A stretch of 64,000 nucleotides of DNA from assembly GCA_963812945.1 (NCBI GenBank), contig CAWEXD010000008.1:2604001-2668000 (forward strand), given 5' to 3'. Under the pieces are notes generated by a model that saw nothing but the letters and a program-made list of their open reading frames with translations, was not told where the DNA came from and searched no databases. Positions 2,817 to 33,350 of the stretch are shown in pieces. Within the stretch, counting starts at the first letter, position 1, and each line of letters begins with the position of its first letter. The position numbers were made by a program, and so were the translations under genes. The stretch is from DASRDR01 sp963812945 [NCBI: uncultured Candidatus Rokubacteria bacterium]. GTDB taxonomy: Bacteria; Methylomirabilota; Methylomirabilia; Rokubacteriales.

Positions 2817-3779
2817 TCAGGCCGAGCGCGCCAGAGGCGCGGGCTCCGGGAAGTAGCAGCGCAACCAGCGGCCGGGCGCCTCCTCCGTCAGCTCCGGCTC
2901 CGCGGCGCGGCAGCGCGCCTCGGCTCGGGGGCAGCGCGTCTGGAACCGGCAGCCCGTCGGTGGATCGAGCGGGCTCGGGATCTCGCCCGGTAGGACCGCG
3001 GGCGGCCGAGCGTCGGGGCCGGCCTCCGGGACGGCCTCCAGGAGCGCCCGCGTGTACGGGTGGCGGGGATGCTCGAAGAGGGCGCCTTCCGGCGCCACCT
3101 CGACGAGCTGCCCGAGATACATGACGGCGACCCGGTGGCTCACGTGGCGGACCACCGCCAGGTTGTGCGAGATGAACAGGAGCGCGAGGCCCAGCTGGCG
3201 CTGGAGGTCGGCGAGCAGGTTCAGGATCTGCGCCTGGACCGAGACGTCGAGCGAGGACACGGCCTCGTCGCACACGAGGAGGCGCGGGCCGAGGGCGAGC
3301 GCCCGGGCGATCCCGATGCGCTGCCGCTGCCCGCCGCTGAAAGCGTGCGGATACCGGTCCATGTACGCGGGGGGCAGGCCGACCGTGTCGAGGAGCTCGC
3401 TCACCCGCGCGGCGGCCGCGCGGCGAGTGGCGCCGAAGTTCCGGAGCGGCTCCCCGACGATGTCGCGAACGGTGAGGCGCGGGTTGAGGGACGAGTAGGG
3501 GTCCTGGAAGACCACCTGCACCGCCCGGCGGAACTCCCGGAGGCGGCGCTCGGGGACCTGGGTCACGTCCTGGCCGTCGAACACGATCCGCCCGGCCGTC
3601 ACCGGCAGGAGCCGCAGGATCAGGCGCCCGACCGTCGTCTTCCCGCACCCACTCTCGCCGACGAGCCCGAGCGTCTCTCCCGGACCGACGTGGAACGTGA
3701 CGTCGTCCACCGCCCGGAGCACCCCTGCACCCACTCGGAACTCCCGCACCAAGCCCTCGACAGCAAGGAGTGGGGTCAG
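2817..3779 (-). CDS. Peptide-type ABC transporter ATP-binding protein (DppF/OppF-like), probable CTG start
   Basis: Second ATPase of the transporter. Walker A is GESGCGKTT, the Q-loop [12 protein letters not shown], the signature [15 protein letters not shown], Walker [13 protein letters not shown] and the H-loop SHNLAVV. The C-terminal oligopeptide-transporter domain ends [15 protein letters not shown], with the Cys pair typical of DppD/DppF. No ATG, GTG or TTG precedes the first beta strand. The nearest in-frame codon keeping the whole domain is CTG at 3779, inside the palindromic repeat; TTG at 3752 or GTG at 3749 would cut the strand. I annotate CTG as the likelier start, about 320 residues. 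The coding sequence itself is unmistakable. Confidence 0.85.
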
Positions 3780-3844
3780 ACTTTGACTTCGGGACAAGTG
3801 TCGCTCCGCCTCGTCGAATTGTCCGGAAGTCAAAGTCTGACCCC
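3772..3844. repeat. REP-like palindromic element, copy 1, between the two ABC ATPase genes
   Basis: A 73-bp imperfect palindrome. The left arm 3772-3790 is GGGGTCAGACTTTGACTTC and the right arm 3826-3844 is its exact reverse complement. With one mismatch and six more pairs the arms reach 26 bp (3772-3797 and 3819-3844). In the RNA this gives a long hairpin. It contains the stop codon of the upstream dppD-like gene (3830-3832) and the only plausible full-length start of the downstream gene. A near-identical copy lies at 19018 and a variant at 33275. No REP-associated transposase gene is visible in the window. Confidence 0.9.
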
Positions 3845-4828
3845 TTCGGTGGCGCGCCAGCAGCGGACACGGCGGCCGGGCTCGTGCGCCTCGAGAGCGG
3901 GGGCGGCCTCCCGGCAGAGCGGAATCGCGTCGGGACACCGGGGGTGGAAGCGGCAGCCGACGGGTCGCGCCGACGGCGCCGGGATGCTCCCCGCAATCGC
4001 CGACAGTCGGGCGCGTTTCTCCCGGACGCTCGGGGCCACGGCCAGGAGGAGGCGCGTGTACGGGTGGCGCGGCTCCCGGAACAGCTCGCGCGTGGGCGCC
4101 TCCTCGACGACCTCCCCGGCGTACATGACGATCACGCGGCTCGCCATCGCGGCCACCACGCCAAGGTCGTGGCTGATCAGCAGCACTGCCGTGCCCGCCG
4201 CCTGGCCGAGGTCCCGCAGGAGCGCCAGAATCTGGGCCTGGATGGTCACGTCGAGCGCGGTCGTCGGCTCGTCGCCGATCAGGAGCCGGGGCCGGCAGGC
4301 CATCGCCATCGCAATCACGACGCGCTGGCGCATCCCACCCGAGAGCTGGTGGGGGTAGTCGTCCACGCGGCGCGCCGCATCGGGGATGCCGACGTCCCGG
4401 AATCGCTCGACGGCCTGCCGGAGGGCTTCCCGGCGCCCGAGGCCGAGATGCTCTTCGAGGACCTCGGCCACCTGGAAGCCGACCGGCAGGAGGGGGTTCA
4501 GGCTGGTCATCGGCTCCTGGAACACCATCGCGATCTGGCGCCCTCGCACGCCGAGCCACTCGCGTTCGGGCAGCGGCACGAGGTCCCGCCCCTGGAACAC
4601 GATCTGCCCCGCGTCGATCCGGCCCTGCTCCCCGAGGAGCCCGAGGATCGAAAGCGCGGTGACCGACTTGCCGGACCCGCTCTCGCCCACCAGCCCCACG
4701 ACCTCGCCTTCCCGGACCGTCAGCGACACCCCGTCGAGCGCGGTGACGCGATCCCGTGACGTCGCGAACGAGACCGACAGGTCGCGGACGTCCAGCAGGG
4801 CGGCTTCGCTCCCGGTCACCGGGCTCAA
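3830..4828 (-). CDS. Peptide-type ABC transporter ATP-binding protein (DppD/OppD-like)
   Basis: A 332-residue ATPase of the DppD/OppD type. Walker [15 protein letters not shown]-loop [11 protein letters not shown], signature [15 protein letters not shown], Walker [13 protein letters not shown] and H-loop SHDLGVV are all intact. The C-terminal domain [15 protein letters not shown] carries the paired Cys of this subfamily. It energises import through the two permeases encoded just upstream, working as a heterodimer with the neighbouring ATPase. The last four residues, Gly-Val-Arg-Leu, and the stop codon come from the palindromic element; the same tail ends the unrelated ATPase at 19032. The gene begins 19 bp after the dppC stop. 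Confidence 0.92.
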
Positions 4829-4847
4829 CTTGGCTACCCTGGCTCCC

Positions 4848-5735
4848 TCACCGGTCGCGCACCCGCGGGTCCAGGAGGTCGCGGAGCCCGTCGCCGAGGA
4901 GGTTGAAGCCGACGATGGTGACGCCGAGGGCGGCGCTCGCCGACAGGGCGAGGTACGGCTCCGTCCGGAGGGCGACCAGGCCGTCCCGGATCATCCCGCC
5001 CCAGGTCGGCAGGGGCTCCTGGACGCCGATGCCGAGAAAGCTCAGCGTCGCCTCCGCCATCACGATGAAGCCGACGCCGATGGAAGCGCGGACGATGAGC
5101 GGCGGCAGGATGTTGGGCAGGACGTGGCGGAGGAGGATCCGCATGGGCCGGGTGGCGCTGACCACCGCGGCATCGACGAAGAGCTCGGTCCGGAGCGAGA
5201 GCGTGAGGGCCCGCGTCAGCCGGGCGATCCCGGGCCACCAGACGATCGCGAGGGCGACGATCACCGTCGGCGTCCCCGGCCCCAGCATCGCCGCGACCAG
5301 GATCGCGAGGATCAGCTCGGGGAAGGCGAAGACGATGTCGGCCCCTCGCATGAGCACCGTGTCGATCCACCCGCCGAAGTACCCGGCAACCATCCCCGCC
5401 AGCGTGCCGACCGTCAGCGTCAGCGCGAGGACGGACACGGCGATCAGCAGCGACACCCGGGCGCCCACGATGAGGCGGCTCAGCACGTCGCGTCCGAGGG
5501 CGTCCCTGCCGAGCACGTGGGCGCGCGAGGGCTCGGCCCAGACGGCCAGGAGATCGGTATCTCCATAGTCATAGGGCGCGAGCCACGGCGTTCCCAGCGC
5601 CGCGCCCGTGACGAGAACGACCAAGGCCCCGCCGAGGCAGGCGTTGCGACTCCGCCGGAAGCGGCGCCAGAAGTCCCCGCCCGCGCGCTCGTCGAGCGCG
5701 GCCAGCGCCGCCACGGGCGCCCCGGCCCCCGTCAC
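4848..5735 (-). CDS. Peptide-type ABC transporter permease, DppC-like
   Basis: Inner-membrane permease of about 295 residues. It has the DppC N-terminal layout: a cytoplasmic stretch, a first membrane segment (LGGALVVLVTGAALGTPWLAP), a periplasmic loop containing LGRDALGRDVLSRLIVGAR, five further membrane spans, and the short family tail LLDPRVRDR. The GTG start at 5735 is chosen because it overlaps the dppB stop as GTGA, the usual coupling in these operons, and leaves a normal N-terminus. It pairs with the DppB-like permease to form the substrate channel. Confidence 0.9.
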   Translation of the reverse strand: MTGAGAPVAALAALDERAGGDFWRRFRRSRNACLGGALVVLVTGAALGTPWLAPYDYGDTDLLAVWAEPSRAHVLGRDALGRDVLSRLIVGARVSLLIAVSVLALTLTVGTLAGMVAGYFGGWIDTVLMRGADIVFAFPELILAILVAAMLGPGTPTVIVALAIVWWPGIARLTRALTLSLRTELFVDAAVVSATRPMRILLRHVLPNILPPLIVRASIGVGFIVMAEATLSFLGIGVQEPLPTWGGMIRDGLVALRTEPYLALSASAALGVTIVGFNLLGDGLRDLLDPRVRDR

Positions 5736-6679
5736 GCCCGTCCCGCCCGACCGGTGCTCAGGCGGATCCGGGGATCGATCACCCCGTAGAGGAGATCCAC
5801 CACCAGGTTGATCCCGGTGTAGAAGAACGTGAAGAGGAGCACGATGGCCATCGTCACCGGATAGTCGCGGGCGAAGATCGCCTGGATCGCCATCCGCCCG
5901 AGCCCGGGGATGTTGAAGAGCGTCTCCACGACGAACGTGCCCGACAGGAGCCCGCCGAGGATGATGCCGATCGTGGTCAGGAGCGGCACCAGCGTGTTGC
6001 GGAGCGCGTGGCGGTAGATCACGAGCCGGCGGCTCAGACCCTTCGCGCGGGCCGTGCGGATGTAGTCTTGCTGGAGGACCTCCAGCATGTAGGTGCGCGA
6101 CAGCCGTGCCACGTAGGCGGTCGGCGGGATCGCCAGCAGGAGCATCGGCAGGACCGCCTGCGAGAGGCCGCCCCAGCCCGCCACCGGGAGCCATCCGAGC
6201 CGGACGCTGAGCAGGTAGACGAGGAACGCGGCCATGGCGAAGTTCGGGATCGAGGTCCCCGCCACGAGCCCGAGGACCACGAGGGTGTCCCAGAGCGAGT
6301 TCCGCCGAAGGGCCGCGAACGTCCCCAGGGCCACGCCGAGCGGCACCGCGAGCAGGAGGGCCCCCGCGGCCAGGAGCGGGGTCACCAGGAGCCCCGGCGC
6401 GATGACGTCGATCACCGGCGTGCTGGCGAACCGGAACGAGAGCCCGAAGTCGCCCCGGACGATGCCGCCCACGTAGGTCACGAACTGTCGCCAGAGCGGC
6501 CGGTCGAGGCCGTACTCCGCGCGGAGCCGCGCCTCGAGCGCGGCGTCCCCCGACTTGTCGCTCAGGAGCGTCATGATCGGGTCGCCGGGGACGAATTGGT
6601 TGGCGACGAACGTCAGGACGACGGCCGTCATCAGGACGGGCAGGAGCCCGAGCACGCGGCGGAGCGCATATTTCCTCAC
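5732..6679 (-). CDS. Peptide-type ABC transporter permease, DppB-like
   Basis: A 315-residue permease. The opening MRKYALRRVLGLLPVLMTAVVLTF is the diagnostic first membrane segment of DppB proteins, followed by FVPGDPIM, a periplasmic domain, WRQFVTYVGGIVRGDFG, and further membrane segments. The cytoplasmic EAA-type loop reads QDYIRTARAKGLS, the contact surface for the ATPases. The stop overlaps the GTG of dppC by four bases. It lies 66 bp after the binding-protein gene. Together with dppC, D and F it forms a complete five-component importer; substrate could be peptides, nickel or other small cations or amides. Confidence 0.92.
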   Translation of the reverse strand: MRKYALRRVLGLLPVLMTAVVLTFVANQFVPGDPIMTLLSDKSGDAALEARLRAEYGLDRPLWRQFVTYVGGIVRGDFGLSFRFASTPVIDVIAPGLLVTPLLAAGALLLAVPLGVALGTFAALRRNSLWDTLVVLGLVAGTSIPNFAMAAFLVYLLSVRLGWLPVAGWGGLSQAVLPMLLLAIPPTAYVARLSRTYMLEVLQQDYIRTARAKGLSRRLVIYRHALRNTLVPLLTTIGIILGGLLSGTFVVETLFNIPGLGRMAIQAIFARDYPVTMAIVLLFTFFYTGINLVVDLLYGVIDPRIRLSTGRAGRA

Positions 6680-6745
6680 CCGCGCGTCCTCATTCCGGCC
6701 GAGGGGCCCGCGGTCAGCCGAGACGTCCCGCCGCCCCCCGGGCTC

Positions 6746-8308
6746 TCAGTCGAGCTTGACGGTCTTGAAGGGCAGGAACCGGAAGGGCGTCAGGTGCACG
6801 CCCTGCACGTTCGGCTTCCGGAGCGCGATCTGCATCCGCACCACGAGAGGGCAAGTCCCCCAGTCGGAGAGGAGCACCTGCTCGGCGTCATGGTAGAGCT
6901 TGTACCGCGCCGGCGCGTCCGCCGTGGCCTGGGCCCGGACGATCAGCTGGTCGAACTCGGCGTTCTTCCAGCGGGCCCGGTTGTAGGGGCTCGGCCCGTA
7001 CCAGACCTGGGAGAGGAAGTACATCGCGTCCGGGTACCCGGCCGTCCAGCCCCACGGGAAGAACGGCACCTCGCCGGCGTTCATCCGCTTGATGAACGTG
7101 CCGCGCTCCTGGATCTCGATCTCGACCGGCATGCCGAGCACCTTCTTGAACTGATCCGCGTAGTACGCCAGCTCGTCCTTGAAGGTGGGCTCGCAGGTGA
7201 TCTTGACCGGGGGCAGGCCCTTGCCGTCGGGATAGCCCGCGTCGGCCATGAGCCGCTTCGCCCGGGCCGGGTCGTACGGGATCGGCTTGACGTTCGGGTT
7301 GTAGCCGGCGACACCCGGCGTCATCTGGCCGTAAAGGGGCGCCCCGGCGCCGCCGTAGAGCCCCTTGACCATGCCCTCGCGGTCGAACGACAGACAGATC
7401 GCCTCCCGGACCCGCTTGTCCTTGAAGGGCTCGTAGAGGTTCTGGTTCATGCCCAGGAAGCGAATCTGGGCCGCCGGCACCGCCAGGATCTGGTCCTTGA
7501 ACTGCGGGTCCTTCAGCACGCGGCGGGCCTGGATCGCCTCGAGCTCGATCACGTCGAGGGCGTTGGCCTCGTACATCGACACCGCCGTGTCGTAGCTCGG
7601 CACGACCAGCATCGCGACCTCGTCGACGAGCGGCGCGCCGCCCCAGTACTCCTTGTGGGCCGCGAGCCGGACCTCCTGCCCGCGCTTCCAGTGCACGAAC
7701 TTGAAGGGACCGGTCCCGGCCGACGCCTTCGTGTGCCAGTCGGCCCCGTGCTCGGCCACGATCCCGCTGTCCATGAACTGGAACGGATAGATCGGGAAGA
7801 GGACGTCGGGGCTCACGAACCGCACCTCGACCGTGTACGGGTCGATGACCTTGACGCCCGAGAGCTGCGTGGCCTTGCCGTCCTGGATGTCCTTCGCCCC
7901 CTCCAGGTCCTTCAGGTAGGTGAGCGTGAGCCCGCCCTTGTTCCCCGGCAGGAGGATCTGCTCGAAGGTCCACTTGACGTCCTTCGCCGTGAACTCCCGG
8001 CCGCTGTGGAACTTCACGCCCTTGCGGAGCTGGAACCGGAAGCCCTTGTTGTCCGGATGGGCCTCCCACCGGACGGCCAGGGCGGGGACCACGTTCCCGT
8101 CCTTGTCGGTGTCGGTGAACCCCTCGTAGAGATTCTTCATCACGTCACCGGCCACCAGCTCCGAGTACGTCACCGGGTCGACCATCGCCGGGTCCGCGCG
8201 GAGGTTCGTGCGCAGCACCTTCCCCTCCGCCGGCGCCAGGGCGACGATCGCGAAGAGTGCGCTCGCGAGACCGGTCAGGCCGACACGGACCAGGCTTCCC
8301 AGGTTCAT
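6746..8308 (-). CDS. Peptide-type ABC transporter substrate-binding protein (SBP family 5)
   Basis: A 520-residue secreted protein. The first 30 residues form a signal peptide with hydrophobic core VGLTGLASALFAIVALAP. The mature part shows the family-5 fold: RADPAMVDPVTYSELVAGDVMKNL near the N-terminus, the FRLRKGVKFHSG-like segment (FQLRKGVKFHSGREFTAKDV), then a long second lobe. The start is preceded by GGGAGG seven bases upstream. It is first in the operon and presumably sets its specificity. No lipobox is seen, consistent with a free periplasmic protein in a diderm. Confidence 0.92.
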   Translation of the reverse strand: MNLGSLVRVGLTGLASALFAIVALAPAEGKVLRTNLRADPAMVDPVTYSELVAGDVMKNLYEGFTDTDKDGNVVPALAVRWEAHPDNKGFRFQLRKGVKFHSGREFTAKDVKWTFEQILLPGNKGGLTLTYLKDLEGAKDIQDGKATQLSGVKVIDPYTVEVRFVSPDVLFPIYPFQFMDSGIVAEHGADWHTKASAGTGPFKFVHWKRGQEVRLAAHKEYWGGAPLVDEVAMLVVPSYDTAVSMYEANALDVIELEAIQARRVLKDPQFKDQILAVPAAQIRFLGMNQNLYEPFKDKRVREAICLSFDREGMVKGLYGGAGAPLYGQMTPGVAGYNPNVKPIPYDPARAKRLMADAGYPDGKGLPPVKITCEPTFKDELAYYADQFKKVLGMPVEIEIQERGTFIKRMNAGEVPFFPWGWTAGYPDAMYFLSQVWYGPSPYNRARWKNAEFDQLIVRAQATADAPARYKLYHDAEQVLLSDWGTCPLVVRMQIALRKPNVQGVHLTPFRFLPFKTVKLD

Positions 8309-8516
8309 CGGGGACCTCCCGGGGTTGGACGGGTTCGAGCGTCTTCGGGCGCCAGCACGGCGACGGCGCCATTCTCGGCAGCGGCTCCGGACAAGTCAAG
8401 GCGGGCCTCGGGCGCGGCCGAGGCGACGGCCGTCACCTGTGAGAGAGTAAGGGCGAGCCGGCTCCGCTCATGGGGACGCGGCCTCGACATCGACCCCCGC
8501 TCCGAGGAGGCAGGAC

Positions 8517-9356: not shown

Positions 9357-9397
9357 CGGGACGCAGGCGCGAACGAGCCGGCGCCGGGGCCGAGACA

Positions 9398-11253: not shown

Positions 11254-11404
11254 CCGCACCTCCCGGCGGCCCGCCACGTGGTGGCCGCCCGGCCGCGATG
11301 ACGCAGGATCGCGGCTACTCGATTATCGACGGTGGCCGGGCAAGGTCCGTTGTCAGGCAAAGCCCGACGACTCCCCCACGACGGCGAAGTCTGCCGAGCG
11401 CTCC

Positions 11405-16828: not shown

Positions 16829-18304
16829 ATGGACACGTCGGACCTGCTCAAGCAGCTGCGCATCGACAAGGACGCGCGCGCGCCGCGCGCCCGGACGGGC
16901 CGGCTCGTCCTGGCCTGCGTGGCGCTCCTGACGCTCGCCGGCGGCCTGCTCTGGCTCACCCTGGCGCGGTCCGCCCCGCCCACCGTGCGCACGGCCACGG
17001 CGCGGGCGGCCAGCCAGGGCGCGGACGGGAGCTCCGTGCTGGATGCCAGCGGCTACGTGACCGCACGGCGACAGGCCACCGTGTCGGCCAAGGTGACCGG
17101 CAAGGTGACCGAGGTGCTGATCGAGGAGGGCATGCGGGTCGAGGAGGGCGCCGTGCTGGCCCGGCTCGACGACACGGAGGCCAAGGCGCAGCTCGCCCTC
17201 GCGCGGGCGCAGCTCGGCGCCGCCCGGTCGCAGGTGGCCGAGATCCAGGCCCAGCTCGACCAGGCCGAGCGGGAGCACGAGCGGCAGCGTGACCTCTTCG
17301 CGCGCCAGGCGCAGCTCGCGACGGCGCGGGCGCAGTTGGCTGCCGCCCGGTCGCAGGTGGCCGAGATCCAGGCCCAGCTCGAGCAGGCCGAACGGGAGCA
17401 CGAGCGGCAGCGCGAGCTCTTCGAGCGCCAGCTCGTCGCGGCGCAGTCGCTCGACACCGCGCGGGCCCAGCGCGACGCCCTGCGGGCCCGGCTCGCGGCC
17501 GGCAACGAGCAGGTCCGAGTCGCCCAGGAATCGGTCGCGGTGGCCGAGGTGACCACCCCGCAGGCCCTCGACACCGCGCGCGCCCAGCGTGACATGCTCC
17601 GGGCCCGGCTGGTCGCCGCCGGCGAGCAGATCCGGGTGGCCCAGGAGGCGGTGGCGGTCGCCGACGTGCAGGTGGCCAACACCGTGATCCGTGCGCCGTT
17701 CAGCGGCATGGTCGTCGCGAAGTCGGCCCAGCCCGGGGAGATGATCTCGCCGATCTCCGCCGGCGGCGGCTTCACCCGCACCGGCATCGGCACCATCGTC
17801 GACATGGACTCGCTCGAGATCCAGGTGGACGTCAACGAGGCCTTCATCAACCGCGTCAAGCCGGGACAGCCGGTCGAGGCGACGCTGAACGCCTACCCTG
17901 ACTCCAGGATCCCGGCCGAGGTGATCGCCATCATCCCGACCGCCGATCGCAGCAAGGCCACGGTCAAGGTCCGGATCGCCCTCAAGCAAAGGGACCCGCG
18001 GATCGTGCCCGACATGGGCGCGCGCGTCCAGTTCCTGGAGCGGGCGCGGCCCGAGGCGCCGGGTGGCGTGCCGGCGCGGACCGGCGTCCTCGTGCCCGCC
18101 GAGGCGGTGCGGCCCGACGGCGACCAGGCGGTCGTGTTCGTCTACGCCGAGGGCAAGGTGGAGCGGCGGCGCGTGGCGCCGGGCCAGACCGTCGGGGCGG
18201 ACCGCCAGGTACTGAGCGGCCTCCGGCCCGGCGAGCGCGTCGTCGTGTCCCCTCCGGACTCGCTCCGGGACGGCGCCGCCGTCAGGCTGAGCGAGGGGGG
18301 ATAG
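16829..18304 (+). CDS. Efflux periplasmic adaptor (MacA/HlyD type) with a duplicated coiled coil
   Basis: A 491-residue membrane-fusion protein. One N-terminal membrane helix (about 26-47) anchors it. Then comes a lipoyl half (SAKVTGKVTEVLIEEGMRVEEG), a long helical hairpin at about 120-285, the second lipoyl half (VIRAPFSGMVVAKSAQPGEMISP), and beta-barrel and membrane-proximal domains. The hairpin is built from two tandem 41-residue copies in the ascending helix (120-160, 161-201) and two 39-residue copies in the descending one (208-246, 247-285). It is followed by a LolD/MacB-type ATPase and two FtsX-like permeases, so it should link that exporter to the outer membrane. Confidence 0.9.
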   Translation: MDTSDLLKQLRIDKDARAPRARTGRLVLACVALLTLAGGLLWLTLARSAPPTVRTATARAASQGADGSSVLDASGYVTARRQATVSAKVTGKVTEVLIEEGMRVEEGAVLARLDDTEAKAQLALARAQLGAARSQVAEIQAQLDQAEREHERQRDLFARQAQLATARAQLAAARSQVAEIQAQLEQAEREHERQRELFERQLVAAQSLDTARAQRDALRARLAAGNEQVRVAQESVAVAEVTTPQALDTARAQRDMLRARLVAAGEQIRVAQEAVAVADVQVANTVIRAPFSGMVVAKSAQPGEMISPISAGGGFTRTGIGTIVDMDSLEIQVDVNEAFINRVKPGQPVEATLNAYPDSRIPAEVIAIIPTADRSKATVKVRIALKQRDPRIVPDMGARVQFLERARPEAPGGVPARTGVLVPAEAVRPDGDQAVVFVYAEGKVERRRVAPGQTVGADRQVLSGLRPGERVVVSPPDSLRDGAAVRLSEGG

Positions 18305-18351: not shown

Positions 18352-19032
18352 ATGGCCCTGGTCGAGATCCGCGGCGTCACGAAGACCTACCAGCGCGGCA
18401 GCGAGCGGATCGAAGTCCTCCACGGCGTCGATCTCGACATCCCCGCGGGCGACTTCCTCGCGCTGATGGGACCGTCGGGCTCCGGCAAGACCACCTTGCT
18501 CAACCTCATCGGCGGGCTGGACACCCCCAGCGGCGGACAGATCGTCGTCGGCGGCGAGCGCATCGACCAGCTCTCGAGGGGAGACCTGACCCGCTGGCGG
18601 GCGGCCCACGTCGGCTTCGTCTTCCAGTTCTACAACCTCATGCCCGTGCTCTCGGCGCAGCGGAACGTCGAGCTGCCGCTCCTCCTGACCTCGCTGTCAG
18701 CGGCCGAGCGGCGGCGCCGCGCCGGCATCGCGCTCACGCTCGTCGGGCTCGCCGACCGCGCGAGCCACAAGCCGCGGGAGCTCTCGGGCGGGCAGGAGCA
18801 GCGGGTCGCCATTGCCAGGGCCATCGTGTCCGATCCGACGCTCCTCATCTGCGACGAGCCGACCGGCGACCTCGATCGCGCGACGGCCGCCGAGATCCTG
18901 AGCCTCTTGCAGATGCTGAACCGGGAGCACGGCAAGACGGTCGTGATGGTCACGCACGACCCCAAGGCCGCGGAGTACGCCCGCCGCCGGCTCCTGCTCG
19001 ACAAGGGCACGCTGAACGGGGTCAGACTTTGA
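18352..19032 (+). CDS. MacB/LolD-type ABC transporter ATP-binding protein
   Basis: A 226-residue ATPase. Walker A GPSGSGKTTLLN, Q-loop FVFQFYNLMPVLSA, signature LSGGQEQRVAIARA (Glu in place of the usual Gln at the fifth position), Walker B LLICDEPTGDLD and H-loop VTHDPKA are intact. The Q-loop FQFYNL is diagnostic of the LolD/MacB group. It powers export or lipoprotein handling with the two permeases downstream. Its last residues, Gly-Val-Arg-Leu, and its stop codon are contributed by the palindromic element starting at 19018, exactly as in the dppD-like gene at 3830. Confidence 0.92.
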   Translation: MALVEIRGVTKTYQRGSERIEVLHGVDLDIPAGDFLALMGPSGSGKTTLLNLIGGLDTPSGGQIVVGGERIDQLSRGDLTRWRAAHVGFVFQFYNLMPVLSAQRNVELPLLLTSLSAAERRRRAGIALTLVGLADRASHKPRELSGGQEQRVAIARAIVSDPTLLICDEPTGDLDRATAAEILSLLQMLNREHGKTVVMVTHDPKAAEYARRRLLLDKGTLNGVRL

Positions 19033-19098
19033 CTTCCGCAGACTTCCGTTCCCGCGTGCCCCCTGGCCCGAACTGTCCGGAAGTCAAAGTCTGACCCC
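19018..19098. repeat. REP-like palindromic element, copy 2, between ATPase and permease
   Basis: An 81-bp palindrome with perfect 21-bp arms, 19018-19038 (beginning GGGGTCAGACTTTGACTTCC) and 19078-19098. The outer 19 bases equal those of copy 1; the loop differs. It carries the stop codon of the upstream ATPase gene (19030-19032) and ends three bases before the ATG of the permease. The hairpin would sit inside the operon mRNA and could adjust expression of the two permeases relative to the adaptor and ATPase. Confidence 0.9.
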
Positions 19099-19101
19099 AC
19101 G

Positions 19102-20268
19102 ATGCGCTACCTTCCCCTCCTCTGGGCCGGGCTCTTCCGCCGGAAGACGCGCACGGTCCTGACGCTCCTGTCCGTGTTCGTCGCCTTCCTGCTCTTCGGC
19201 CTGCTCCAGGCCGTGACCGTCGCCTTCGAGTCGGGCGCCGACAGCGCGGACGCCAAGCGCCTCCTCACCACCGCGCGCTATTCCATCATCGAGCTCCTGC
19301 CCATCTCGCATCTGCGGCAGATCGAGCAGGTGCCGGGCGTCGTCGGAGTGGCCAGCGCCGAGTGGTTCGGCGCCAAGTACCAGAACGAAAGCAACGCGTT
19401 CCCCGTCTTCGCGGTCGACCCCCAGCGCTATCTCGACATGTACCCGGAGTTCACGATCGCGGCCGACCAGCGCGACGCCTTCATCCGGACGCGCAGCGGC
19501 GCGGTGGCGGGCGTACGCCTCGTCCAGCGCTATGGCTGGAAGGTCGGACAGAAGCTGCCGATGAGCTCCGAGATCCACGCCAAGACGGACGGCACCCTTA
19601 CCTGGGAGTTCGACCTGGTCGGGACGCTCGACGCCGAGGACCCCGCGGTTCGCGCCAACACCGACGTCGTGCTCATCAACGTCGCCTACTTCGACGAGGC
19701 GCGCGGCCTGGGCAAGGGCAAGACCGGCTGGTACATCGTGCGGATCGCCGACGCGACCCAGGCCCGGGCCGTCTCGGCCGCGATCGACGGGCGATTCTCG
19801 AACTCCCCGGACGAGACCAAGACCCAGCCGGAGAAGGAGTTCGCCGTCGGCTTCGCCAAGCAGATCGGCGACCTGGGGGCCCTCGTCACCCGCATCCTGG
19901 CCGCGGTGTTCTTCACCATCCTGATCATGACCGGCAACACGATGGCTCAGTCCGTCCGCGAGCGCCTCCCGGAGCTGGCCATCCTGAAGACCCTCGGCTT
20001 CTCGGACGGCAAGGTCACGGCGCTCGTGCTGGGGGAGGCGCTGTTCCTGCTCGGCCTGGCCGGCGGGCTGGGCATGCTGGTGGCCACCGGCGTGCTGCCC
20101 GCTCTCAATCGGGCCATCGGCGCCCGTTTTCCCCCGCTCCACGTGACGCCGGGCACCTGGCTGACCGGCGCGGCGATCGTCCTCGCGCTCGCGCTCGCCG
20201 TCGGGCTGCCCCCCGCGCTCAGGGCGAGGCGGCTCCGGATCGTCGACGCGCTGGCCGGGCACCGCTGA
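19102..20268 (+). CDS. FtsX-like ABC transporter permease (first of two)
   Basis: A 388-residue MacB/FtsX-type permease. One membrane helix follows the basic start MRYLPLLWAGLFRRKTRT, then a periplasmic domain of about 220 residues, then three C-terminal membrane segments with the motif SVRERLPELAILKTLGFSDGKV, which is the coupling loop of the family, and a basic C-terminus (ALRARRLRIVDALAG). The start is the first ATG after the palindromic element, and no clear ribosome site precedes it because the hairpin arm occupies that space. It should form a heterodimer with the next gene product. Confidence 0.9.
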   Translation: MRYLPLLWAGLFRRKTRTVLTLLSVFVAFLLFGLLQAVTVAFESGADSADAKRLLTTARYSIIELLPISHLRQIEQVPGVVGVASAEWFGAKYQNESNAFPVFAVDPQRYLDMYPEFTIAADQRDAFIRTRSGAVAGVRLVQRYGWKVGQKLPMSSEIHAKTDGTLTWEFDLVGTLDAEDPAVRANTDVVLINVAYFDEARGLGKGKTGWYIVRIADATQARAVSAAIDGRFSNSPDETKTQPEKEFAVGFAKQIGDLGALVTRILAAVFFTILIMTGNTMAQSVRERLPELAILKTLGFSDGKVTALVLGEALFLLGLAGGLGMLVATGVLPALNRAIGARFPPLHVTPGTWLTGAAIVLALALAVGLPPALRARRLRIVDALAGHR

Positions 20269-23097: not shown

Positions 23098-23236
23098 TTG
23101 ACCACTCCTGACTTTTCTATGGTACCAAGGTGCATTTCTGCCTCTTTCGTCGATCGCCTACGACGGGCAACATCTTCTGAGGAGCTATATCGCCATCCCG
23201 GCGAGTTGTCAATTGTCTCTTGTAATAGTAAAGCCG

Positions 23237-23266: not shown

Positions 23267-23352
23267 TTGAATCGCGATCACGCTTTCGCCAGTCAACTTG
23301 CAAGGCTACGCGCTGTTAGTTAGGTTCCGAACAAGGAGACGGGACTCAAACC

Positions 23353-23535: not shown

Positions 23536-23564
23536 TGAGGCCTGACCCCTTTCAGGAGGCGACG

Positions 23565-25398: not shown

Positions 25399-25400
25399 GG

Positions 25401-25478
25401 GCTGATAGGCCAGGTGCCACAGCCTCTCGGTCAGAGATCATACGATTCGTAGGGAAGTGCCATAGCCTCTCGGTCACT
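25401..25478. repeat. Left end of the insertion sequence: target duplication and two inverted-repeat copies
   Basis: GCTGATA at 25401-25407 is the left copy of the target duplication. The outer terminal repeat is 25408-25433 (GGCCAGGTGCCACAGCCTCT and six more bases), matched perfectly in reverse at 26730-26755. A second, inner copy lies at 25457-25478 (GTGCCATAGCCTCTCGGTCA plus CT). The two copies share the core GTGCCA-nAGCCTCTCGGTCA, 26 bases apart, resembling paired transposase-binding sites. Confidence 0.85.
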
Positions 25479-26755: not shown

Positions 26756-26762
26756 GCTGATA
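26703..26762. repeat. Right end of the insertion sequence: two inverted-repeat copies and target duplication
   Basis: The inner repeat at 26703-26726 (AGTGACTGAGAGGGTCTGGC plus ACCT) matches the left inner copy in reverse with three mismatches over 22 bases. The outer repeat at 26730-26755 is a perfect reverse match to 25408-25433. GCTGATA at 26756-26762 is the right copy of the target duplication. Confidence 0.85.
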
Positions 26763-26774
26763 GAATCACACACG

Positions 26775-27884: not shown

Positions 27885-27914
27885 ACGACAACGCGTGCGG
27901 CACAGGTCCTCCCG

Positions 27915-27962
27915 GCTCGGCAGCTCCAGCCCGAGGGATGCCAGCTTGGCCTCGACGCTCAC
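27915..27962 (-). pseudogene. Possible N-terminal stub of a RidA-family gene
   Basis: From GTG at 27962 the minus strand reads VSVEAKLASLGLELPS, strongly reminiscent of the opening of RidA/YjgF-family proteins, which often start M-S-V-E-A-R-L then L-G-L-E-L-P. After about 16 residues the similarity ends and the frame enters the antisense of the Ldh2-type gene. It looks like a gene start whose body has been deleted. Recognition rests on a short motif and is tentative. Confidence 0.3.
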
Positions 27963-27993
27963 CGGGCTACCCTGGCTCTGCGCGAGTTGATCG

Positions 27994-28012
27994 GACGGCC
28001 TTCGGCCTGTGG
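27994..28012. repeat. Short hairpin repeat, copy A
   Basis: GACGGCCTTCGGCCTGTGG occurs here and again, identical over all 19 bases, at 34395-34413. The centre GGCC-TTC-GGCC forms a small stem-loop. This copy lies downstream of the Ldh2-type gene and of the convergent serine hydrolase, in an intergenic position. Confidence 0.6.
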
Positions 28013-28028
28013 GCTCATGCGCGCATCT

Positions 28029-28871
28029 TCATCGACGTCCCAGGTCGTCGTAGCACCGGCGCGCCATGCGGCCGATGAGCTGGTAGGCGGCGGCAAAGCC
28101 CGGCGTGCCGTCCGCGAGGGTGTCGGGGACGTCGAAGGTGTAGGCGGTCAGAATGCACAGCGGCCGGTCCCCCTTGAAGATGATGCCGGCGTCGTTGTAG
28201 CAGCGACGCCCGGTCCCGGTCTTGTGGGCGACCTTCGTCCCAAGGGGCAGGAGCGAGGGCAGCCGCGTCTTGAGCTTCTGCCAGGAAAGGATGTCGAGGC
28301 CCAGCCGACACAGCGCCGGCGCGCACTGGAGGCGTGCGGCCACCGCCGGGTCCTCGGCTCCCCGCAAGATCAGCTCGAGCAGGAGCCCCTGGTCGTTCGG
28401 CGTCGTCGTCGTGACCCGGTCGAGCGCGTCGTCGGCGCCACCCCTCGGCGGGATCCCGTAGCGATGGATCGTTCCGGTCAGACCGACCGCTTCGGTGTAG
28501 CGCTGGACGTTCTCGAGCCCCACGAGGTCGACGACGGTGCCCGTGCACGTGTTGTCGCTGACGATGATCATCATCACCATCGCGTCCCGCAGCGTGATCC
28601 AGAACCCGGGCGTCAGGTGCTGGAACGTGCCCGAGTCGTTGTCCTGGTACCGGGCGTCGATGGTCACCTTCTGATCGAGCGCGAGCTTCCCGGCGTGGAC
28701 CGCCGCCAGCGCGGCCATCATGATCGAGATCTTCCGCGTGCTGGCCGACGGCACGGGCACGCCGCCGAGCCGACGGGCGCTGGCGCCCGTCGCGAGATCC
28801 TTCAAGTACCAGCTAGCCTGGAAGCCCGCAGCGTCACACATCTCGTCGAGCCGCCTCACGGTCTCACGCAT
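28029..28871 (-). CDS. Class-A beta-lactamase-fold serine hydrolase
   Basis: A 280-residue protein with the three serine-penicilloyl-enzyme motifs in order: S-x-x-K at 44-47 (PSASTRKIS), S-D-N at 105-107 (IIVSDNTC) and K-T-G at 217-219 (HKTGTG). The TTTTP stretch before helix eight is also typical of class A. The omega-loop Glu needed for beta-lactam deacylation (E-x-x-x-N) is not apparent in the LTGTIHRYGIPPRGGADDAL interval, and no signal peptide is present with the ATG used. So it is more likely an esterase or peptidase-like relative than a resistance enzyme. It lies downstream of the TAXI-TRAP operon on the same strand, 95 bp away. Confidence 0.85.
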   Translation of the reverse strand: MRETVRRLDEMCDAAGFQASWYLKDLATGASARRLGGVPVPSASTRKISIMMAALAAVHAGKLALDQKVTIDARYQDNDSGTFQHLTPGFWITLRDAMVMMIIVSDNTCTGTVVDLVGLENVQRYTEAVGLTGTIHRYGIPPRGGADDALDRVTTTTPNDQGLLLELILRGAEDPAVAARLQCAPALCRLGLDILSWQKLKTRLPSLLPLGTKVAHKTGTGRRCYNDAGIIFKGDRPLCILTAYTFDVPDTLADGTPGFAAAYQLIGRMARRCYDDLGRR

Positions 28872-28966
28872 CGACAGCCTCCTCTCTGGGGTTCTCCGAG
28901 AGCACCGCGGAATTGCGCCGCGGTTGCCGCAGAGCGGCGCGTGCGTTGACCCGCCGAGACCGCTCT

Positions 28967-29062
28967 TCAGAAGGCGTAGAGCCGAAGGACGCCGTACGCG
29001 ACCGTCCCCGCGATGAGCGCCGCCGCGATGAGGGTCAGCGCCGCGTGCTGGGCGGGGCTCAT
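28967..29062 (-). CDS. 31-residue single-helix membrane protein coupled to the TRAP permease
   Basis: An ATG at 29062 overlaps the stop codon of the TRAP fusion permease as ATGA and opens a 31-codon frame ending TGA at 28967. The product is MSPAQHAALTLIAAALIAGT then VAYGVLRLYAF. It has a polar N-terminus, a hydrophobic stretch of about 21 residues and a short aromatic tail, i.e. a single transmembrane helix. The exact coupling, absence of rare codons and sensible amphipathy argue for a real gene. It may be a small accessory subunit stabilising the transporter. No family is recognised. Confidence 0.65.
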   Translation of the reverse strand: MSPAQHAALTLIAAALIAGTVAYGVLRLYAF

Positions 29063-31116
29063 GGCACCGCCCGGGCGACGATCGGGTCAGGCCGCCGGAG
29101 CTTCTGTCCGAGGAGGACGGCGCCGAGCAGCCCGAGGCCGAGGAGATCGGTCACGAGCTGGGGGTCGATGAGCAACAGCGCCGCGGCGAGCAGGAGGCCC
29201 CGCTCGAGCCAGGTCGCGTTGCGGAGAAGGTAGCCTTCGAGGCCGGCCGCGAGCGCGACCACCCCGATCCCGCCCGTCACGACCGCCAGGGCGATCTCCC
29301 CCCAGGGCCCCTGGAAGAGAAGGGCCGGGTAATAGATGAAGAAGTACGGCACCACGAAGCCCGCGGCGGCGAACTTCACGGCCTGCCACCCGGCGCGCCA
29401 GACACTGCACCGCGCGATCGAGGCCGCCGCGTAGACGGCGAGGCACTCCGGCGGGGTGATCGCGCTCAGACAGCCGAAGTAGAACGCGAACATGTGGGCG
29501 GCCATCGGCGGCACCCCCAGCTTGATCAGCGCGGGGATGAGAAGCGCCGCCAGCATGATGTAGGCCGGCGTCGTCGGCAATGCCGTGCCGAGGATGATCG
29601 CGGCGATCATCGTGATGACCAGCGCGACGATGAGCGAGCCGCCCGCGAAGTCGACGAGGAAGCTCGTGAACCGGATCGCGAGCCCCGTCTGCAGGATGAT
29701 CCCGATCATGATGCCCGCGGCGGCCGTCGCCATCGCGACCGGGACCGTCTGGAAGGCGCCGTCCCGGAGTGCGAGCGGCGCGTCGCGCCGCAGGAGGTCC
29801 CGGACAGCCCTCGGGCCGCCGGGACGGGCCAGGGCCCCGGCCAGGCCGACCGCCGCCAGCCCGACCCAGCCCCAGACGCCCGCGCCCCCGGTCCAGAGCA
29901 TCGCGCCGGCGATCAGGAGCGGCCAGACCCAGAGCCCCAGCAGCCACGCGTAGATGACCGCGAGCGTCGCGACCAGGGCGGCGTACGTGGCCGTGAACCC
30001 CTGGAGCAGCAGCAGGAAGATCACCACGACCGGCGCGAGCAGGTGGCCGTGGCTCCACAGCACGTCGCGGAGCCGCGGCAGCTCCTCCTTCGGCAGGCCG
30101 CGGAGCCCGGCCCGCGACGCGTTGAAGTGGATCGCCGCGAACAGCGCGCCGTAGTAGAAGAGCGCCGGGATCGCGGCGGCGACCATGACGTGCCAGTACG
30201 GGACGCCGAGGAACTCCGCCATCACGAAGGACGCGGCGCCCATCACCGGCGGCATGATCTGCCCCCCGGTCGACGCGGTCGCCTCGATCGCGGCGGCGGC
30301 CTCCGGCTTGAACCCGGTGCGCTTCATCATGGGGATCGTGAGCCACCCGTCGACCATGACGTTGGCGACGGCGGAGCCGGAGATCGTGCCGAAGAGGCTC
30401 GACGACACCACGGCGACCTTCCCGGGACCGCCCCGCTGCGCCCCGGCCACGGCGTTGGCCAGATGCATGAAGAACTGGCCGGCCCCGGACTTCTCGAGGA
30501 ACGCCCCGAAGATGATGAACAGGATGACGTACGAGGCGGCGACGCCCAGCGGGATGCCGAAGAGACCCTCGGTCGTGAAGGCCGTCTGGTCGATCAGGAT
30601 CTCGTACGTGAGCCCCTTGTGGCGGAGCGGGCCCGGCATCCAGGGACCCAGGAGACCGTAGGCGATGAAGATCAGGCACAGCACCGGCAGGGCCGGGCCG
30701 AGCGTCCGCCGGGTGGCCTCGAGCACGAGGAGCACGACGACCGTCCCGACGACCATGTCGAGCGGGCTGAGGGGGTGGGCGGTCGGGAACCGCGTGGTGA
30801 CGTACTCGTAGAAGACGAAGAAGTAGGCCATCGTGGCGATGGACAGCGCCGCCAGGCCGAGATCGCCCCAGGGGATCGTCGACGGCGCGGCGGCGCCCTC
30901 CGTGTCCTCGAGCCGCGTGCTCTCCTCGTCCAGGGGGGCCGTCGCCTGGCGCGGAAACAGCAGGAAGGCGAGCGTCAGGCAGAATGCCAGCGCGATCATC
31001 CGGAGGATGAGCGTGTCGGGAGCCGCCGGGGTGAGCCGGGCGTAGACGTGGTAGAGGGCCATCACGCCCCCTACCACGCCGACGACGAGAGCTGCGTAGC
31101 CGGTGAGCTTGCGCAC
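29059..31116 (-). CDS. TAXI-type TRAP transporter permease, fused small and large subunits
   Basis: A 685-residue polytopic protein. The N-terminal part (about 1-110) carries four membrane segments equivalent to the DctQ small subunit. The rest is the DctM-like large subunit with about twelve to fourteen segments. Recognisable blocks include GIPLGVAASYVILFIIFGAF, SSLFGTISGSAVANVMVDGW and GGQIMPPVMGAASFVMAEF, the conserved TRAP scoop region, and GTALPTTPAYIMLAAL. It starts 9 bp after the TAXI binding-protein stop. TRAP transporters use a sodium or proton gradient, not ATP, to import organic acids. Coupled at its end to a 31-residue ORF. Confidence 0.93.
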   Translation of the reverse strand: MRKLTGYAALVVGVVGGVMALYHVYARLTPAAPDTLILRMIALAFCLTLAFLLFPRQATAPLDEESTRLEDTEGAAAPSTIPWGDLGLAALSIATMAYFFVFYEYVTTRFPTAHPLSPLDMVVGTVVVLLVLEATRRTLGPALPVLCLIFIAYGLLGPWMPGPLRHKGLTYEILIDQTAFTTEGLFGIPLGVAASYVILFIIFGAFLEKSGAGQFFMHLANAVAGAQRGGPGKVAVVSSSLFGTISGSAVANVMVDGWLTIPMMKRTGFKPEAAAAIEATASTGGQIMPPVMGAASFVMAEFLGVPYWHVMVAAAIPALFYYGALFAAIHFNASRAGLRGLPKEELPRLRDVLWSHGHLLAPVVVIFLLLLQGFTATYAALVATLAVIYAWLLGLWVWPLLIAGAMLWTGGAGVWGWVGLAAVGLAGALARPGGPRAVRDLLRRDAPLALRDGAFQTVPVAMATAAAGIMIGIILQTGLAIRFTSFLVDFAGGSLIVALVITMIAAIILGTALPTTPAYIMLAALLIPALIKLGVPPMAAHMFAFYFGCLSAITPPECLAVYAAASIARCSVWRAGWQAVKFAAAGFVVPYFFIYYPALLFQGPWGEIALAVVTGGIGVVALAAGLEGYLLRNATWLERGLLLAAALLLIDPQLVTDLLGLGLLGAVLLGQKLRRPDPIVARAVP

Positions 31117-31125
31117 CGGCGTCGG

Positions 31126-32100
31126 CTACTTCAGGAGACCGGCCTCACGGTAGTAGCGCTCCGCTCCGGGGTGCATGGGCAGCCCGTGGTTCTGCGCCAT
31201 GTCCTTCGCGCTCACGCCCTTCATCGCGGCCGTCACCCGCCCGAAGTCCTCGCGGCTCTCGACCACCGCCTTCGCGACCCTGTAGATCACGTCGGCCGGC
31301 GTCTTGGCGCTCGCGATCAGGATCGTGGGCGCCTGGACGGTCTTCACGTCCTCGTCCACTCCATACTGGGCGTACGTGGCCTTCGGGATGACATGCTGGA
31401 CGAACCCAGCGTTGAGCTCCTTCAGCCCCTTGAACTCCTCGTCGGAGACGTGCACCATGCGCAGCTTCATCGACGTGCCGAGGTCGAGCATGAACGAGGC
31501 CGGGACCGTGGTGAACCAGCCCATGCCGACCGCCTGGCGGTTCCGGATGGCCTCGGCGTTCTCGGTCAGCGAGCCGTAGCTCTTCGTGCCGAGGTCGTCG
31601 AACTTCAAGCCGTTGACCTTGAGCAGCCACTCCCAACCCTCGGCGAGGCTCGTGTTGCCACGGGGCGGCAGGCCGACCGCCTTGCCCTTGAGGTCCTTGA
31701 GGGACTTGACCCCGCTGTCCTGCGTCACCGCCAGCTGCCACACGTTCGGGTAGTAGTTCGCGACGAACAGCGGCTTGTCCGTCTGCTTGCCCTTCCAGCT
31801 GTTGGTGCCCGCGCGGGCGTCGGCGACGACGGTCGTCATCGACCAGGCGATGTCCGCCTTGTCGTTGCGCATCTTCTCCATGTTGACGAGCGCCGCGCCA
31901 GGCTCCACCAGCACGTCGAGCTCGGGAAACTTCCGCTTGATGACCTCGGCGGTGGCGGCCGCCATGGGCGTCCACGTCCCGCCGGTCGGGCCGGCCGAGA
32001 AGATGACCTGCGCTTTCTGCTGCGCGTCTCCCGGCGAGGCGACGAGCACGGTGAGCACGGCGACCAGTGCCAGGACGGCCAGCGTCTTCACGCGATGCAT
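31126..32100 (-). CDS. TAXI-family TRAP transporter solute-binding protein
   Basis: A 324-residue periplasmic protein. Signal peptide MHRVKTLAVLALVAVLTVLVASPGDAQQ. The mature start VIFSAGPTGGTWTPMAAATAEVI is the TAXI-family ligand pocket (G-G-T-W/Y), followed by VEPGAALVNMEKMRNDKADIAWSM. The ATG at 32100 has AAGGAGG nine bases upstream. It delivers a ligand, often glutamate or another carboxylate, to the fused TRAP permease encoded next. It follows the TIM-barrel gene by 74 bp and is probably co-transcribed with it. Confidence 0.93.
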   Translation of the reverse strand: MHRVKTLAVLALVAVLTVLVASPGDAQQKAQVIFSAGPTGGTWTPMAAATAEVIKRKFPELDVLVEPGAALVNMEKMRNDKADIAWSMTTVVADARAGTNSWKGKQTDKPLFVANYYPNVWQLAVTQDSGVKSLKDLKGKAVGLPPRGNTSLAEGWEWLLKVNGLKFDDLGTKSYGSLTENAEAIRNRQAVGMGWFTTVPASFMLDLGTSMKLRMVHVSDEEFKGLKELNAGFVQHVIPKATYAQYGVDEDVKTVQAPTILIASAKTPADVIYRVAKAVVESREDFGRVTAAMKGVSAKDMAQNHGLPMHPGAERYYREAGLLK

Positions 32101-32174
32101 GCTCGACCTCCTTGTTCTGTCGTGTCGTCCCTGGCTTCGTCCAGGGCGTTGCCTTGCCACGGTGTGGCTCTCGT

Positions 32175-33071
32175 TCAGCGCGCGCTCCCGCGGGCGCGGG
32201 AAGGCCCCCGGATCGCCGCGCGGCGGGACGGCCGCGCCGCCGTGCGGCCACGCGCGCGTCGCCGACCATTCTCCGAGAGGAGGGCGAGCAGCCGGCGGTG
32301 GCTCGCGAGCTTCTTCGGAACGTCGAACAGCTCGATGATCAGCGGCCCGGCGAAGCGGATGCGCTCGAGGGCGCCCAGCACCCGCCGGAAATCGATCGTC
32401 CCCTCCCCGATCGTCATGTGCTCGTCGACCCGCCCGCGGTTGTCCGAGAGCTGGGCGGAGTGGATGCGATCCGGGAAGGCCCGGACGAACGGCGGGGTCC
32501 CGCCGGGCAGGAGCTCGCAATGCGCCACGTCCAGCGCGAGCCCGAGGTAGGGCGAGCGGATCCGGTCGAAGAGCCGCTGGAACTCGTCGACGCGCACGCC
32601 CAGGTACTGGAACTCCGAGTCGCCCGGGAGCTGGTTCATGTTCTCGATGACCAGCGGCACGCGGCGGCGCTCGCCGTACTCGACCGAGCGGGCCATCGTC
32701 TCGTAGAGCGCGGCGTGCACGGTGTCGAGGTACGCGCTGAAGTGGAAGCCGCAGTGGACGACCAGGTACTCGCAGCCGAGGGCGGCCGTGAGATCGACGT
32801 ACTCCCGCAGATGCGCGGCGGCCGCCTTCCGGACCGTGGGCATGATCTCGGCGGTGTTGACGAAGGACGCCGAGTGGAGCCCGCAGCGGATCCCCGACCG
32901 CTCGATCAGCGCGCGGACGCGGCGGATCCGCGCCCGGTCGAACGTCTGGGGAAAGTTCACCGGGTTCTGGCAGGAGAACTCGAGCCAGCTGACGGAGTGT
33001 CGGCGGGCGAGCGGGAAGTAGCGCTCGACCGGTCCGGAGGAGGCGGCGTAGCCGATCTGGGCGGGCTGCAT
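32175..33071 (-). CDS. Sugar-phosphate isomerase/epimerase-like TIM-barrel protein
   Basis: A 298-residue xylose-isomerase-like/AP-endonuclease-2 fold protein. Metal-site signatures are visible as EYLVVHCGFHF, VPLVIENMNQL, YLGLALDVAHCEL, RIHSAQLSDNRGRVDEHMTIGEGTIDF and PLIIELF; these provide the His, Glu and Asp ligands of the barrel. The C-terminus is an Arg-rich tail of about 35 residues. The family isomerises or epimerises sugars and inositol derivatives. Being first in the TAXI-TRAP operon, it may process the imported ligand (inference). Upstream at 33275 is a palindromic element. Confidence 0.88.
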   Translation of the reverse strand: MQPAQIGYAASSGPVERYFPLARRHSVSWLEFSCQNPVNFPQTFDRARIRRVRALIERSGIRCGLHSASFVNTAEIMPTVRKAAAAHLREYVDLTAALGCEYLVVHCGFHFSAYLDTVHAALYETMARSVEYGERRRVPLVIENMNQLPGDSEFQYLGVRVDEFQRLFDRIRSPYLGLALDVAHCELLPGGTPPFVRAFPDRIHSAQLSDNRGRVDEHMTIGEGTIDFRRVLGALERIRFAGPLIIELFDVPKKLASHRRLLALLSENGRRRARGRTAARPSRRAAIRGPSRARGSAR

Positions 33072-33274
33072 CGCTACCGCTTCCGCGGGCGCTCCGGAGC
33101 GACGCTCTCGATCACGCGATCCCCTCCCCTCTCGGTGACCACTGCCGGGATAGCCGGGCGACCAGGCGGCCAGAGACGCCAGCCACTGGGCGGCGGCTGG
33201 CCGGCCCCATCCGCGCGATGCGGATGCCCTGGTTCCTACACTGGCGCTCGCCGCGGTGTCAACCGTCGTCAAAT

Positions 33275-33350
33275 GGGGTCAGGCCCCGACTTTGACTTCC
33301 AGCGCGGACGGAGCGGGATTGCCGCGAAGTCAAAGTCAAGGCCTGACCCC
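33275..33350. repeat. REP-like palindromic element, copy 3 (variant arms), after tctC
   Basis: A 76-bp palindrome. The left arm GGGGTCAGGCCCCGACTTTG and following ACTTC matches the right arm in reverse with two mismatches over 24 bases (33275-33298 and 33327-33350). The outer GGGGTCAG and inner GACTTTGACTTC are shared with copies 1 and 2, but a five-base GCC-plus-two insert distinguishes it. It lies 4 bp beyond the stop codon of the TctC gene, again exactly at a gene end. It may terminate or stabilise the tctBAC transcript. Confidence 0.85.

What the first reader, a model, noticed from the sequence alone, without database searches (positions are those of the whole stretch)
3772..33350. Three long REP-like palindromes, each placed exactly at a stop codon
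Copies at 3772-3844, 19018-19098 and 33275-33350 share outer arm GGGGTCAG and inner GACTTTGACTTC. Two contain the stop codon of the gene they follow and the third begins 4 bp after one. Three of three at gene ends is far from random in DNA where almost every base is coding. Either insertion is targeted to stop codons or only such insertions survive. No RAYT transposase is in the window.
Basis: partly seen in the sequence, partly recalled or inferred. Interest (0 to 1): 0.65.

Follow-up and report, generated by a model that had tools for sequence, protein, structure and literature searches.

The report
Mobile DNA hairpins supplying stop codons
Three copies of a small hairpin-forming DNA repeat sit at the ends of genes, and in two of them the repeat itself supplies the gene's stop signal; it fits a known class of transposase-associated repeats, so it is a clear new example and not a new kind of thing.

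Summary
Three palindromes (3772-3844, 19018-19098, 33275-33350) share head GGGGTCAG and inner arm GACTTTGACTTC. Copies 1 and 2 hold the stop codon of the gene they follow (GGG GTC AGA CTT TGA, tail GVRL*); copy 3 lies 4 nt past a TAA. Surrogates give none. No RAYT-like gene was detected in the window.

GGGGTCAG fits GGGGWSAS, the published motif of repeats flanking TIRYT transposase genes. Such palindromes occur in 32 of 250 Burkholderiales and 33 of 247 Acidobacteriota genomes. In 11 Burkholderiales genomes, 11 of 21 Y1 transposase loci carry such heads on both sides. In five of these genomes 73 of 102 non-genic copies hold a stop codon or lie within 15 nt of one, against 15-58 expected. Given the gaps they occupy, 59-71 of 100 are expected, so survival at gene ends explains most of it; targeting is not needed. 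At seven loci the closest relative's gene ends 0-8 residues from the element's stop. REP ends supplying stop codons is in print (PMC3733652). New member of a known kind; the window's own transposase and organism remain unseen.

The parts
3772..3844 (.). Palindrome copy 1, 73 nt; inverted arms GGGGTCAGACTTTGACTTC(C)GGACAA around a variable centre
   Evidence: (96% complementary arms)
19018..19098 (.). Palindrome copy 2, 81 nt; same 19-nt arms
33275..33350 (.). Palindrome copy 3, 76 nt; arms with a 5-nt insert between GGGGTCAG and GACTTTGACTTC
3830..4828 (-). OppD-like ABC ATPase gene whose stop TGA (3832-3830) and last four residues GVRL are encoded by copy 1
   Evidence: profile PRK09473 (NF007010) covered to 316 of 318, PRK11022 (NF008246) to 316 of 326
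2817..3797 (-). OppF-like ABC ATPase gene that starts at or inside copy 1; an in-frame TTG (3797-3795) with GGAG 6 nt upstream lies inside the hairpin. Start not certain: my gene caller chose 3749
   Evidence: the start is inference
18352..19032 (+). LolD-like ABC ATPase gene whose stop TGA (19030-19032) and last residues GVRL are encoded by copy 2
   Evidence: profile TIGR02211 covered to 219 of 221
19102..20268 (+). FtsX-like permease gene, ATG 3 nt after copy 2
33355..34362 (-). TctC-family receptor gene; its stop TAA (33357-33355) lies 4 nt from copy 3
   Evidence: (PF03401 covered to 274 of 274)

Best explanation
The three palindromes are non-autonomous copies of a TIR/REPIN-type repeat: two inverted GGGGTCAG-headed arms of the kind that flank TIRYT-like Y1/HUH transposase genes. 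A transposase elsewhere in this genome, not seen here, most likely spread them (inferred from relatives). Insertions inside genes or between a promoter and its gene are lost; those at the 3' end of a gene survive. The arm reads GGG GTC AGA CTT TGA in one frame, so a gene hit in its last codons ends in the repeat and loses almost nothing. Hence copies are found on stop codons without a transposase that recognises them. A structured 3' end may also change translation or mRNA decay of the upstream gene; that is inference. Shown: architecture, stop substitution, shared head, bias in other genomes. Inferred: mobility here, the transposase, any effect on expression.
For: Head and palindrome recur as multi-copy families: 32 of 250 genomes of the order of G005, up to 94 copies, reversed control in 1; 33 of 247 of the phylum of G002, control in 2. 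All 11 genomes given to a PF01797 search have matches, 21 places; 11 places are flanked on both sides by inverted heads, 1 on one side, 9 not. In G1188 three such genes carry three arms, the arms of the palindromes listed. Five proteins match the REP-associated tyrosine transposase model NF047646, though below its cut-off; 7 of 7 are Y1_Tnp. Copies avoid genes (2 of 104 inside) and divergent gaps (3 of 100 against 105 of 757) and favour convergent gaps (46 of 100 against 124 of 757). With the gaps taken as given 59-71 of 100 copies near a stop are expected, 73 seen. At seven G1063 loci the closest relative ends 0-8 residues from the element's TAG. In the window profiles end close to the hairpin.
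Against: No genome of the window's lineage, no transposase and no fourth copy could be examined. The exact arm was not found paired in any collection searched. Three of the five genomes (19 copies) show no significant stop excess. Some more distant relatives have longer proteins: by 10 residues at locus p2, by 17 and 22 at p6. Mobility of this element was not observed. The proteins' scores for NF047646 are 67.9-73.6 bits against a cut-off of 80.
Confidence: 0.75

Rival explanations
1. Targeted insertion: the transposase or its DNA guide prefers sequences or structures found at stop codons (TGA/TAG/TAA junctions, or hairpins just behind genes), so the repeats land there directly.
For: Stops lie at a few sharp offsets (1, 2, 5, 7, 8 nt). 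In all-gap nulls the excess is strong (73 seen; 15.3, 32.2, 43.6 or 57.9 expected with 0, 15, 30 or 60 nt of gene end tolerated). At locus p1 the gene ends exactly where its relatives end.
Against: Offsets 1 and 2 are stop codons inside the element's own outer tag. Gap-matched nulls expect 59-71 of 100. Insertion points at the seven loci vary over 0-8 residues by closest relative. The three window copies share no flanking sequence that I could see.
Confidence: 0.15
2. Selected regulators: the repeats are kept at gene ends because a hairpin within about 15 nt of a stop codon tunes translation or mRNA stability.
For: PMC12306157 (section 8) states that an earlier study found E. [quoted passage not shown] 73 of 102 copies hold a stop or are within 15 nt of one.
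Against: No expression data. The same paper finds only 446 of 4,072 predicted E. coli REPs within 15 nt. The placement is largely accounted for by gap choice.
Confidence: 0.08
3. Chance palindromes or ordinary transcription terminators.
For: They stand behind genes and fold.
Against: Identical arms at two places and nearly so at the third, 0 in 200 surrogates; copies 1 and 2 lie inside operons and no run of T follows any copy; no Rfam match in the window at gathering cut-offs.
Confidence: 0.02

Closest known systems
TIR repeats of TIRtrons / TIRYT transposases (PMC3733652), mostly TnpA-REP subclass 2.1 (PMC6006769)
   Same: Head GGGGTCAG fits the GGGGWSAS / GGGG[AT][CG]A[CG] consensus; dispersed TIR families, often as dimers; in relatives the same head and arms flank Y1 transposase genes, sometimes overlapping the 3' end.
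   Different: No transposase seen in this window; the inner arm GACTTTGACTTC is not among the arms listed; the lineage was not among the genomes that could be searched by name.
GTAG REPs / REPINs with RAYT (PMC3733652, PMC8266576, PMC2817692)
   Same: Small inverted-pair palindromes, mostly between genes near 3' ends; [quoted passage not shown]
   Different: No GTAG at the window copies; the stop here is TGA inside the arm. Some G1063 relatives do have AAGTAGA outside the head.
Miniature inverted-repeat elements (MITEs) of DDE transposons
   Same: Short, non-autonomous, inverted repeats.
   Different: No target-site duplication visible by eye at the three sites; transposase genes with this head are Y1, not DDE.

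Membership tests
TIR repeat of TIRYT (TnpA-REP subclass 2.1) | Inverted repeats with motif GGGGWSAS | tested here: met
   GGGGTCAG in all six arms; consensus read
TIR repeat of TIRYT (TnpA-REP subclass 2.1) | Same repeat flanks a Y1/HUH transposase gene in the same genome | not testable with these tools
   No genome held for the window; none detected in the 64 kb. In other genomes with this head: both sides at 11 of 21 Y1 loci
TIR repeat of TIRYT (TnpA-REP subclass 2.1) | Dispersed family of copies | tested here: met
   Three copies in 64 kb; genome-wide number unknown
TIR repeat of TIRYT (TnpA-REP subclass 2.1) | Transposase with C-terminal HTH domain, as PMC6006769 states for the TIRYTs of subclass 2.1 | tested here: inconclusive
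   Pfam on 7 relatives: Y1_Tnp in 7, HTH models only weakly and below cut-off in 2
GTAG REP / REPIN | GTAG tetranucleotide next to the palindrome | tested here: not met
   Flanks of the three copies read and printed have no GTAG adjacent to the head
GTAG REP / REPIN | Mostly extragenic, near 3' ends of genes | tested here: met
   3 of 3 in the window
MITE of a DDE transposon | Target-site duplication | tested here: not met
   No direct repeat on the two sides of any copy by reading; no empty site of the window loci was available

The most novel reading that the evidence does not exclude
GGGGWSAS palindromes are stop-codon specialists: their arms keep an in-frame stop because the same arm ends the transposase gene it flanks (at 5 of 21 Y1 loci the gene's stop is the TGA of CTGACCCC). 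This makes insertion on native stop codons nearly cost-free, so the family has evolved towards, or its transposase targets, gene ends. In copy 1 the repeat would even supply the stop of one gene and the ribosome site and start of the next.
Probability: 0.15. Interest if true: 0.6.

Novelty: new member of a known kind. Interest (0 to 1): 0.32.

Why it matters
It turns a stop-codon association seen at three sites into one measured over 104 copies in five other genomes, and shows how much of it follows from where insertions can survive. It ties GGGGTCAG palindromes to transposase genes by matching arms, and gives a testable reason why such repeats carry stop codons. For annotation: C-terminal tails such as GVRL may be encoded by a repeat.

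Tried and rejected
Finding its taxon: the TctA protein has at most 44.7% identity among the 15 listed plasmid records, 46% in 201 genomes of the phylum of G001 and 43% in 200 of the phylum of G005. The lineage stays unknown; Methylomirabilota/Rokubacteria was my guess from recall, untested.

Finding the window's arm elsewhere: 16 loci in genome contigs, none with a partner arm; 0 in viral contigs for the 19-mer; the two loci lie inside one phage reading frame (the second locus is the same sequence reversed) and were taken as chance; 0 of 247 genomes in each of two phyla; no blastn match of copy 1 in plasmids or phages. Poribacteria: 11 of 97 genomes match a looser pattern, but the reversed control matches 13 by my count, so chance. 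The phylum of G001 with a stricter pattern (T and A added outside the heads): 0 of 251.

My first gene caller called antisense frames in GC-rich DNA, seen when I read the gene ends; it was replaced and its counts (58 of 97) are superseded. Copies dropped before counting: those within 1000 nt of a fetched region's edge, and overlapping matches. Counted: 69 copies of G1188 (94 by the tool's pattern), 16 of G1063 (22), 9 of G1054 (23), 5 of G1141 (29), 5 of G1094 (16); regions were fetched only around listed places. The relatives test covers 7 of the 9 G1063 copies whose stop is the tag's TAG; the gene ends of the other two (L244, L245) were not in the query, and the eighth query piece (L254) was dropped after the corrected gene calling.

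Terminator and chance readings were rejected. A tblastn hit of one RAYT at window 19350-19622 (27.5% over 109 residues, E 0.017) lies inside the FtsX-like permease gene and was taken as chance.

Full report
What is there. The window holds three palindromes at the given places. Copies 1 and 2 have the arm GGGGTCAGACTTTGACTTC; copy 3 has five more bases between GGGGTCAG and GACTTTGACTTC. Over both strands the three fold at -46.6 to -54.2 kcal/mol. The middle parts differ. GGGGTCAG(25-70)CTGACCCC occurs three times in the window and not once in 200 order-2 surrogates. No further site with up to 5 mismatches to the 19-nt arm was found in the window. No Rfam family reaches its gathering score.

Gene context. 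Copy 1 lies between an OppD-like and an OppF-like ABC ATPase gene on the minus strand, copy 2 between a LolD-like ATPase and an FtsX-like permease gene on the plus strand, copy 3 behind a TctC gene. In copies 1 and 2 the upstream gene reads into the arm as GGG GTC AGA CTT TGA, so both proteins end in GVRL. Only this frame of the 19-nt arm holds a stop. The best-fitting profiles reach 316 of 318 (OppD, NF007010) and 219 of 221 (LolD, TIGR02211) before the repeat-encoded tail; another OppD profile (NF008246) reaches 316 of 326. So the repeats replaced the native stop and cut off little or nothing. Copy 2 ends 3 nt before the next ATG. Behind copy 1 the next gene has no ATG at its conserved N-terminus; an in-frame TTG inside the hairpin with GGAG 6 nt upstream could serve (inference, my gene caller put the start at 3749).

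Other genomes. No genome is held for the window. A profile of 17 RAYT-like proteins finds nothing better than E 0.42 in its six frames, against 1.8e-84 for a left-out RAYT locus as control; tblastn gives at best E 0.017, inside the permease gene. I therefore used other genomes. The head pattern occurs in 32 of 250 genomes of the order of G005 (the genome of a Jezberella record; Burkholderiales by recall), with up to 94 copies in one, and in 33 of 247 of the phylum of G002 (a Bryobacteraceae record; Acidobacteriota by recall). The reversed control pattern hits 1 and 2 genomes. The stricter form with T and A outside gave 0 of 251 in the phylum of G001.

Link to transposases. I gave 11 of the 32 genomes to a PF01797 search: 11 of 11 match, 21 places. 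At 11 of 21 places the gene has inverted GGGGTCAG heads on both sides, at 1 on one side, at 9 not. In G1188 the three genes carry three arms, and the palindromes listed fall into the same three families. Five proteins hit NF047646, REP-associated tyrosine transposase, at 67.9-73.6 bits, below its cut-off of 80; 7 of 7 are Y1_Tnp in Pfam, with only weak HTH hits in 2. At 5 of 21 places the transposase gene's own stop is the TGA of the flanking CTGACCCC; at 6 more the head starts 3-8 nt after the stop; at one (L193) the gene reads through two heads before it stops.

The published name. PMC3733652 (sections 15 and 16 read, other passages by search) describes RAYT-like genes flanked by terminal inverted repeats that share GGGGWSAS (TIRtrons, TIRYT), with moderately abundant dispersed TIR families. 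[quoted passage not shown] PMC6006769 (passages) puts 20 of 26 TIRYTs in TnpA-REP subclass 2.1. GGGGTCAG fits GGGGWSAS. A search of papers for the arm strings found none. Of PMC12306157 I saw the abstract and section 8, of PMC8266576 the abstract and introduction, of PMC2817692 passages, of the others listings only.

Are stop codons preferred? I fetched 104 copies with surroundings from five genomes, called genes with a model that was retrained after a first faulty one, and measured distances. Two copies are inside genes. Of the other 102, 73 hold a stop codon (8) or lie within 15 nt of one. Random placement in all intergenic space expects 15.3; tolerating the last 15, 30 or 60 nt of genes expects 32.2, 43.6 and 57.9. 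Starts are not preferred (7, expected 12-20). Convergent gaps are over-represented (46 of 100 against 124 of 757) and divergent ones avoided (3 of 100 against 105 of 757). If only the gaps that hold a copy are used, 59.0 (nothing tolerated) or 70.8 (30 nt tolerated) of 100 are expected near a stop, so most of the effect is which gaps carry copies. G1188 (54 of 68) and G1063 (14 of 15) drive the result; the other three genomes (5 of 19) show no significant excess. Gene ends rest on my own gene caller.

Why the sharp offsets. In G1063 9 of 16 copies have TAG 1 nt before the head, because the outer tag AA(G/A)TAGA belongs to the element. Seven of these were compared with relatives; no head was seen beside the gene end in any listed relative. 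Against the closest relative the gene ends 0, 1, 5, 2, 1, 0 and 8 residues short (p1 to p7); some more distant relatives are longer, by 10 residues at p2 and by 17 and 22 at p6. Native stops in relatives are TGA, TAA or TAG. So the element went in at or very near the native stop and its own stop took over. The window copies do the same with the TGA of the arm.

Conclusion. A non-autonomous mobile palindrome of TIRYT type whose surviving copies sit at gene ends, where its arm ends translation. Shown: architecture, stop substitution, shared head, bias in other genomes. Inferred: mobility in this organism, its transposase, any effect on expression. Targeting of stop codons is possible but not needed. 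The motif and the stop-codon habit are in print, so this is a new member of a known kind.

Noticed in passing
copies in G1188, G1063, G1054, G1141 (loci L223-L302): Bases just outside the heads differ between copies of a family yet pair within a copy: at outward position 8, 51 of 90 copies pair against 25 expected from other copies. It may mean templated correction of palindromes or insertion into existing hairpins. The window copies show 0, 0 and 1 paired bases.
   Followed up: partly
46 convergent copies in five genomes: In 26 of 46 convergent copies both genes have their stop inside or within 15 nt of the same palindrome, in 12 one of them: one repeat ends two genes.
   Followed up: partly
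L049:4578-4656 and 5238-5316: A viral contig carries two identical 79-nt GGGGTCAG palindromes 660 nt apart; no Y1 transposase was evident in the frames listed there.
   Followed up: partly
genome G380, contig C171:1628-4215: Three nearly identical GGGGTCAG palindromes about 1.0 and 1.5 kb apart in a genome of the phylum of G002, possibly around transposase genes.
   Followed up: no
window 54295-61706: Genes for a putative baseplate assembly protein (TIGR02243, 58743-61706) and a DUF6519 protein (54295-56649), as in contractile injection systems (the link to such systems is recall).
   Followed up: no
window 17184-17429: Two adjacent 123-nt direct repeats, 89% alike, inside the HlyD-like gene 16829-18304.
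   Followed up: no
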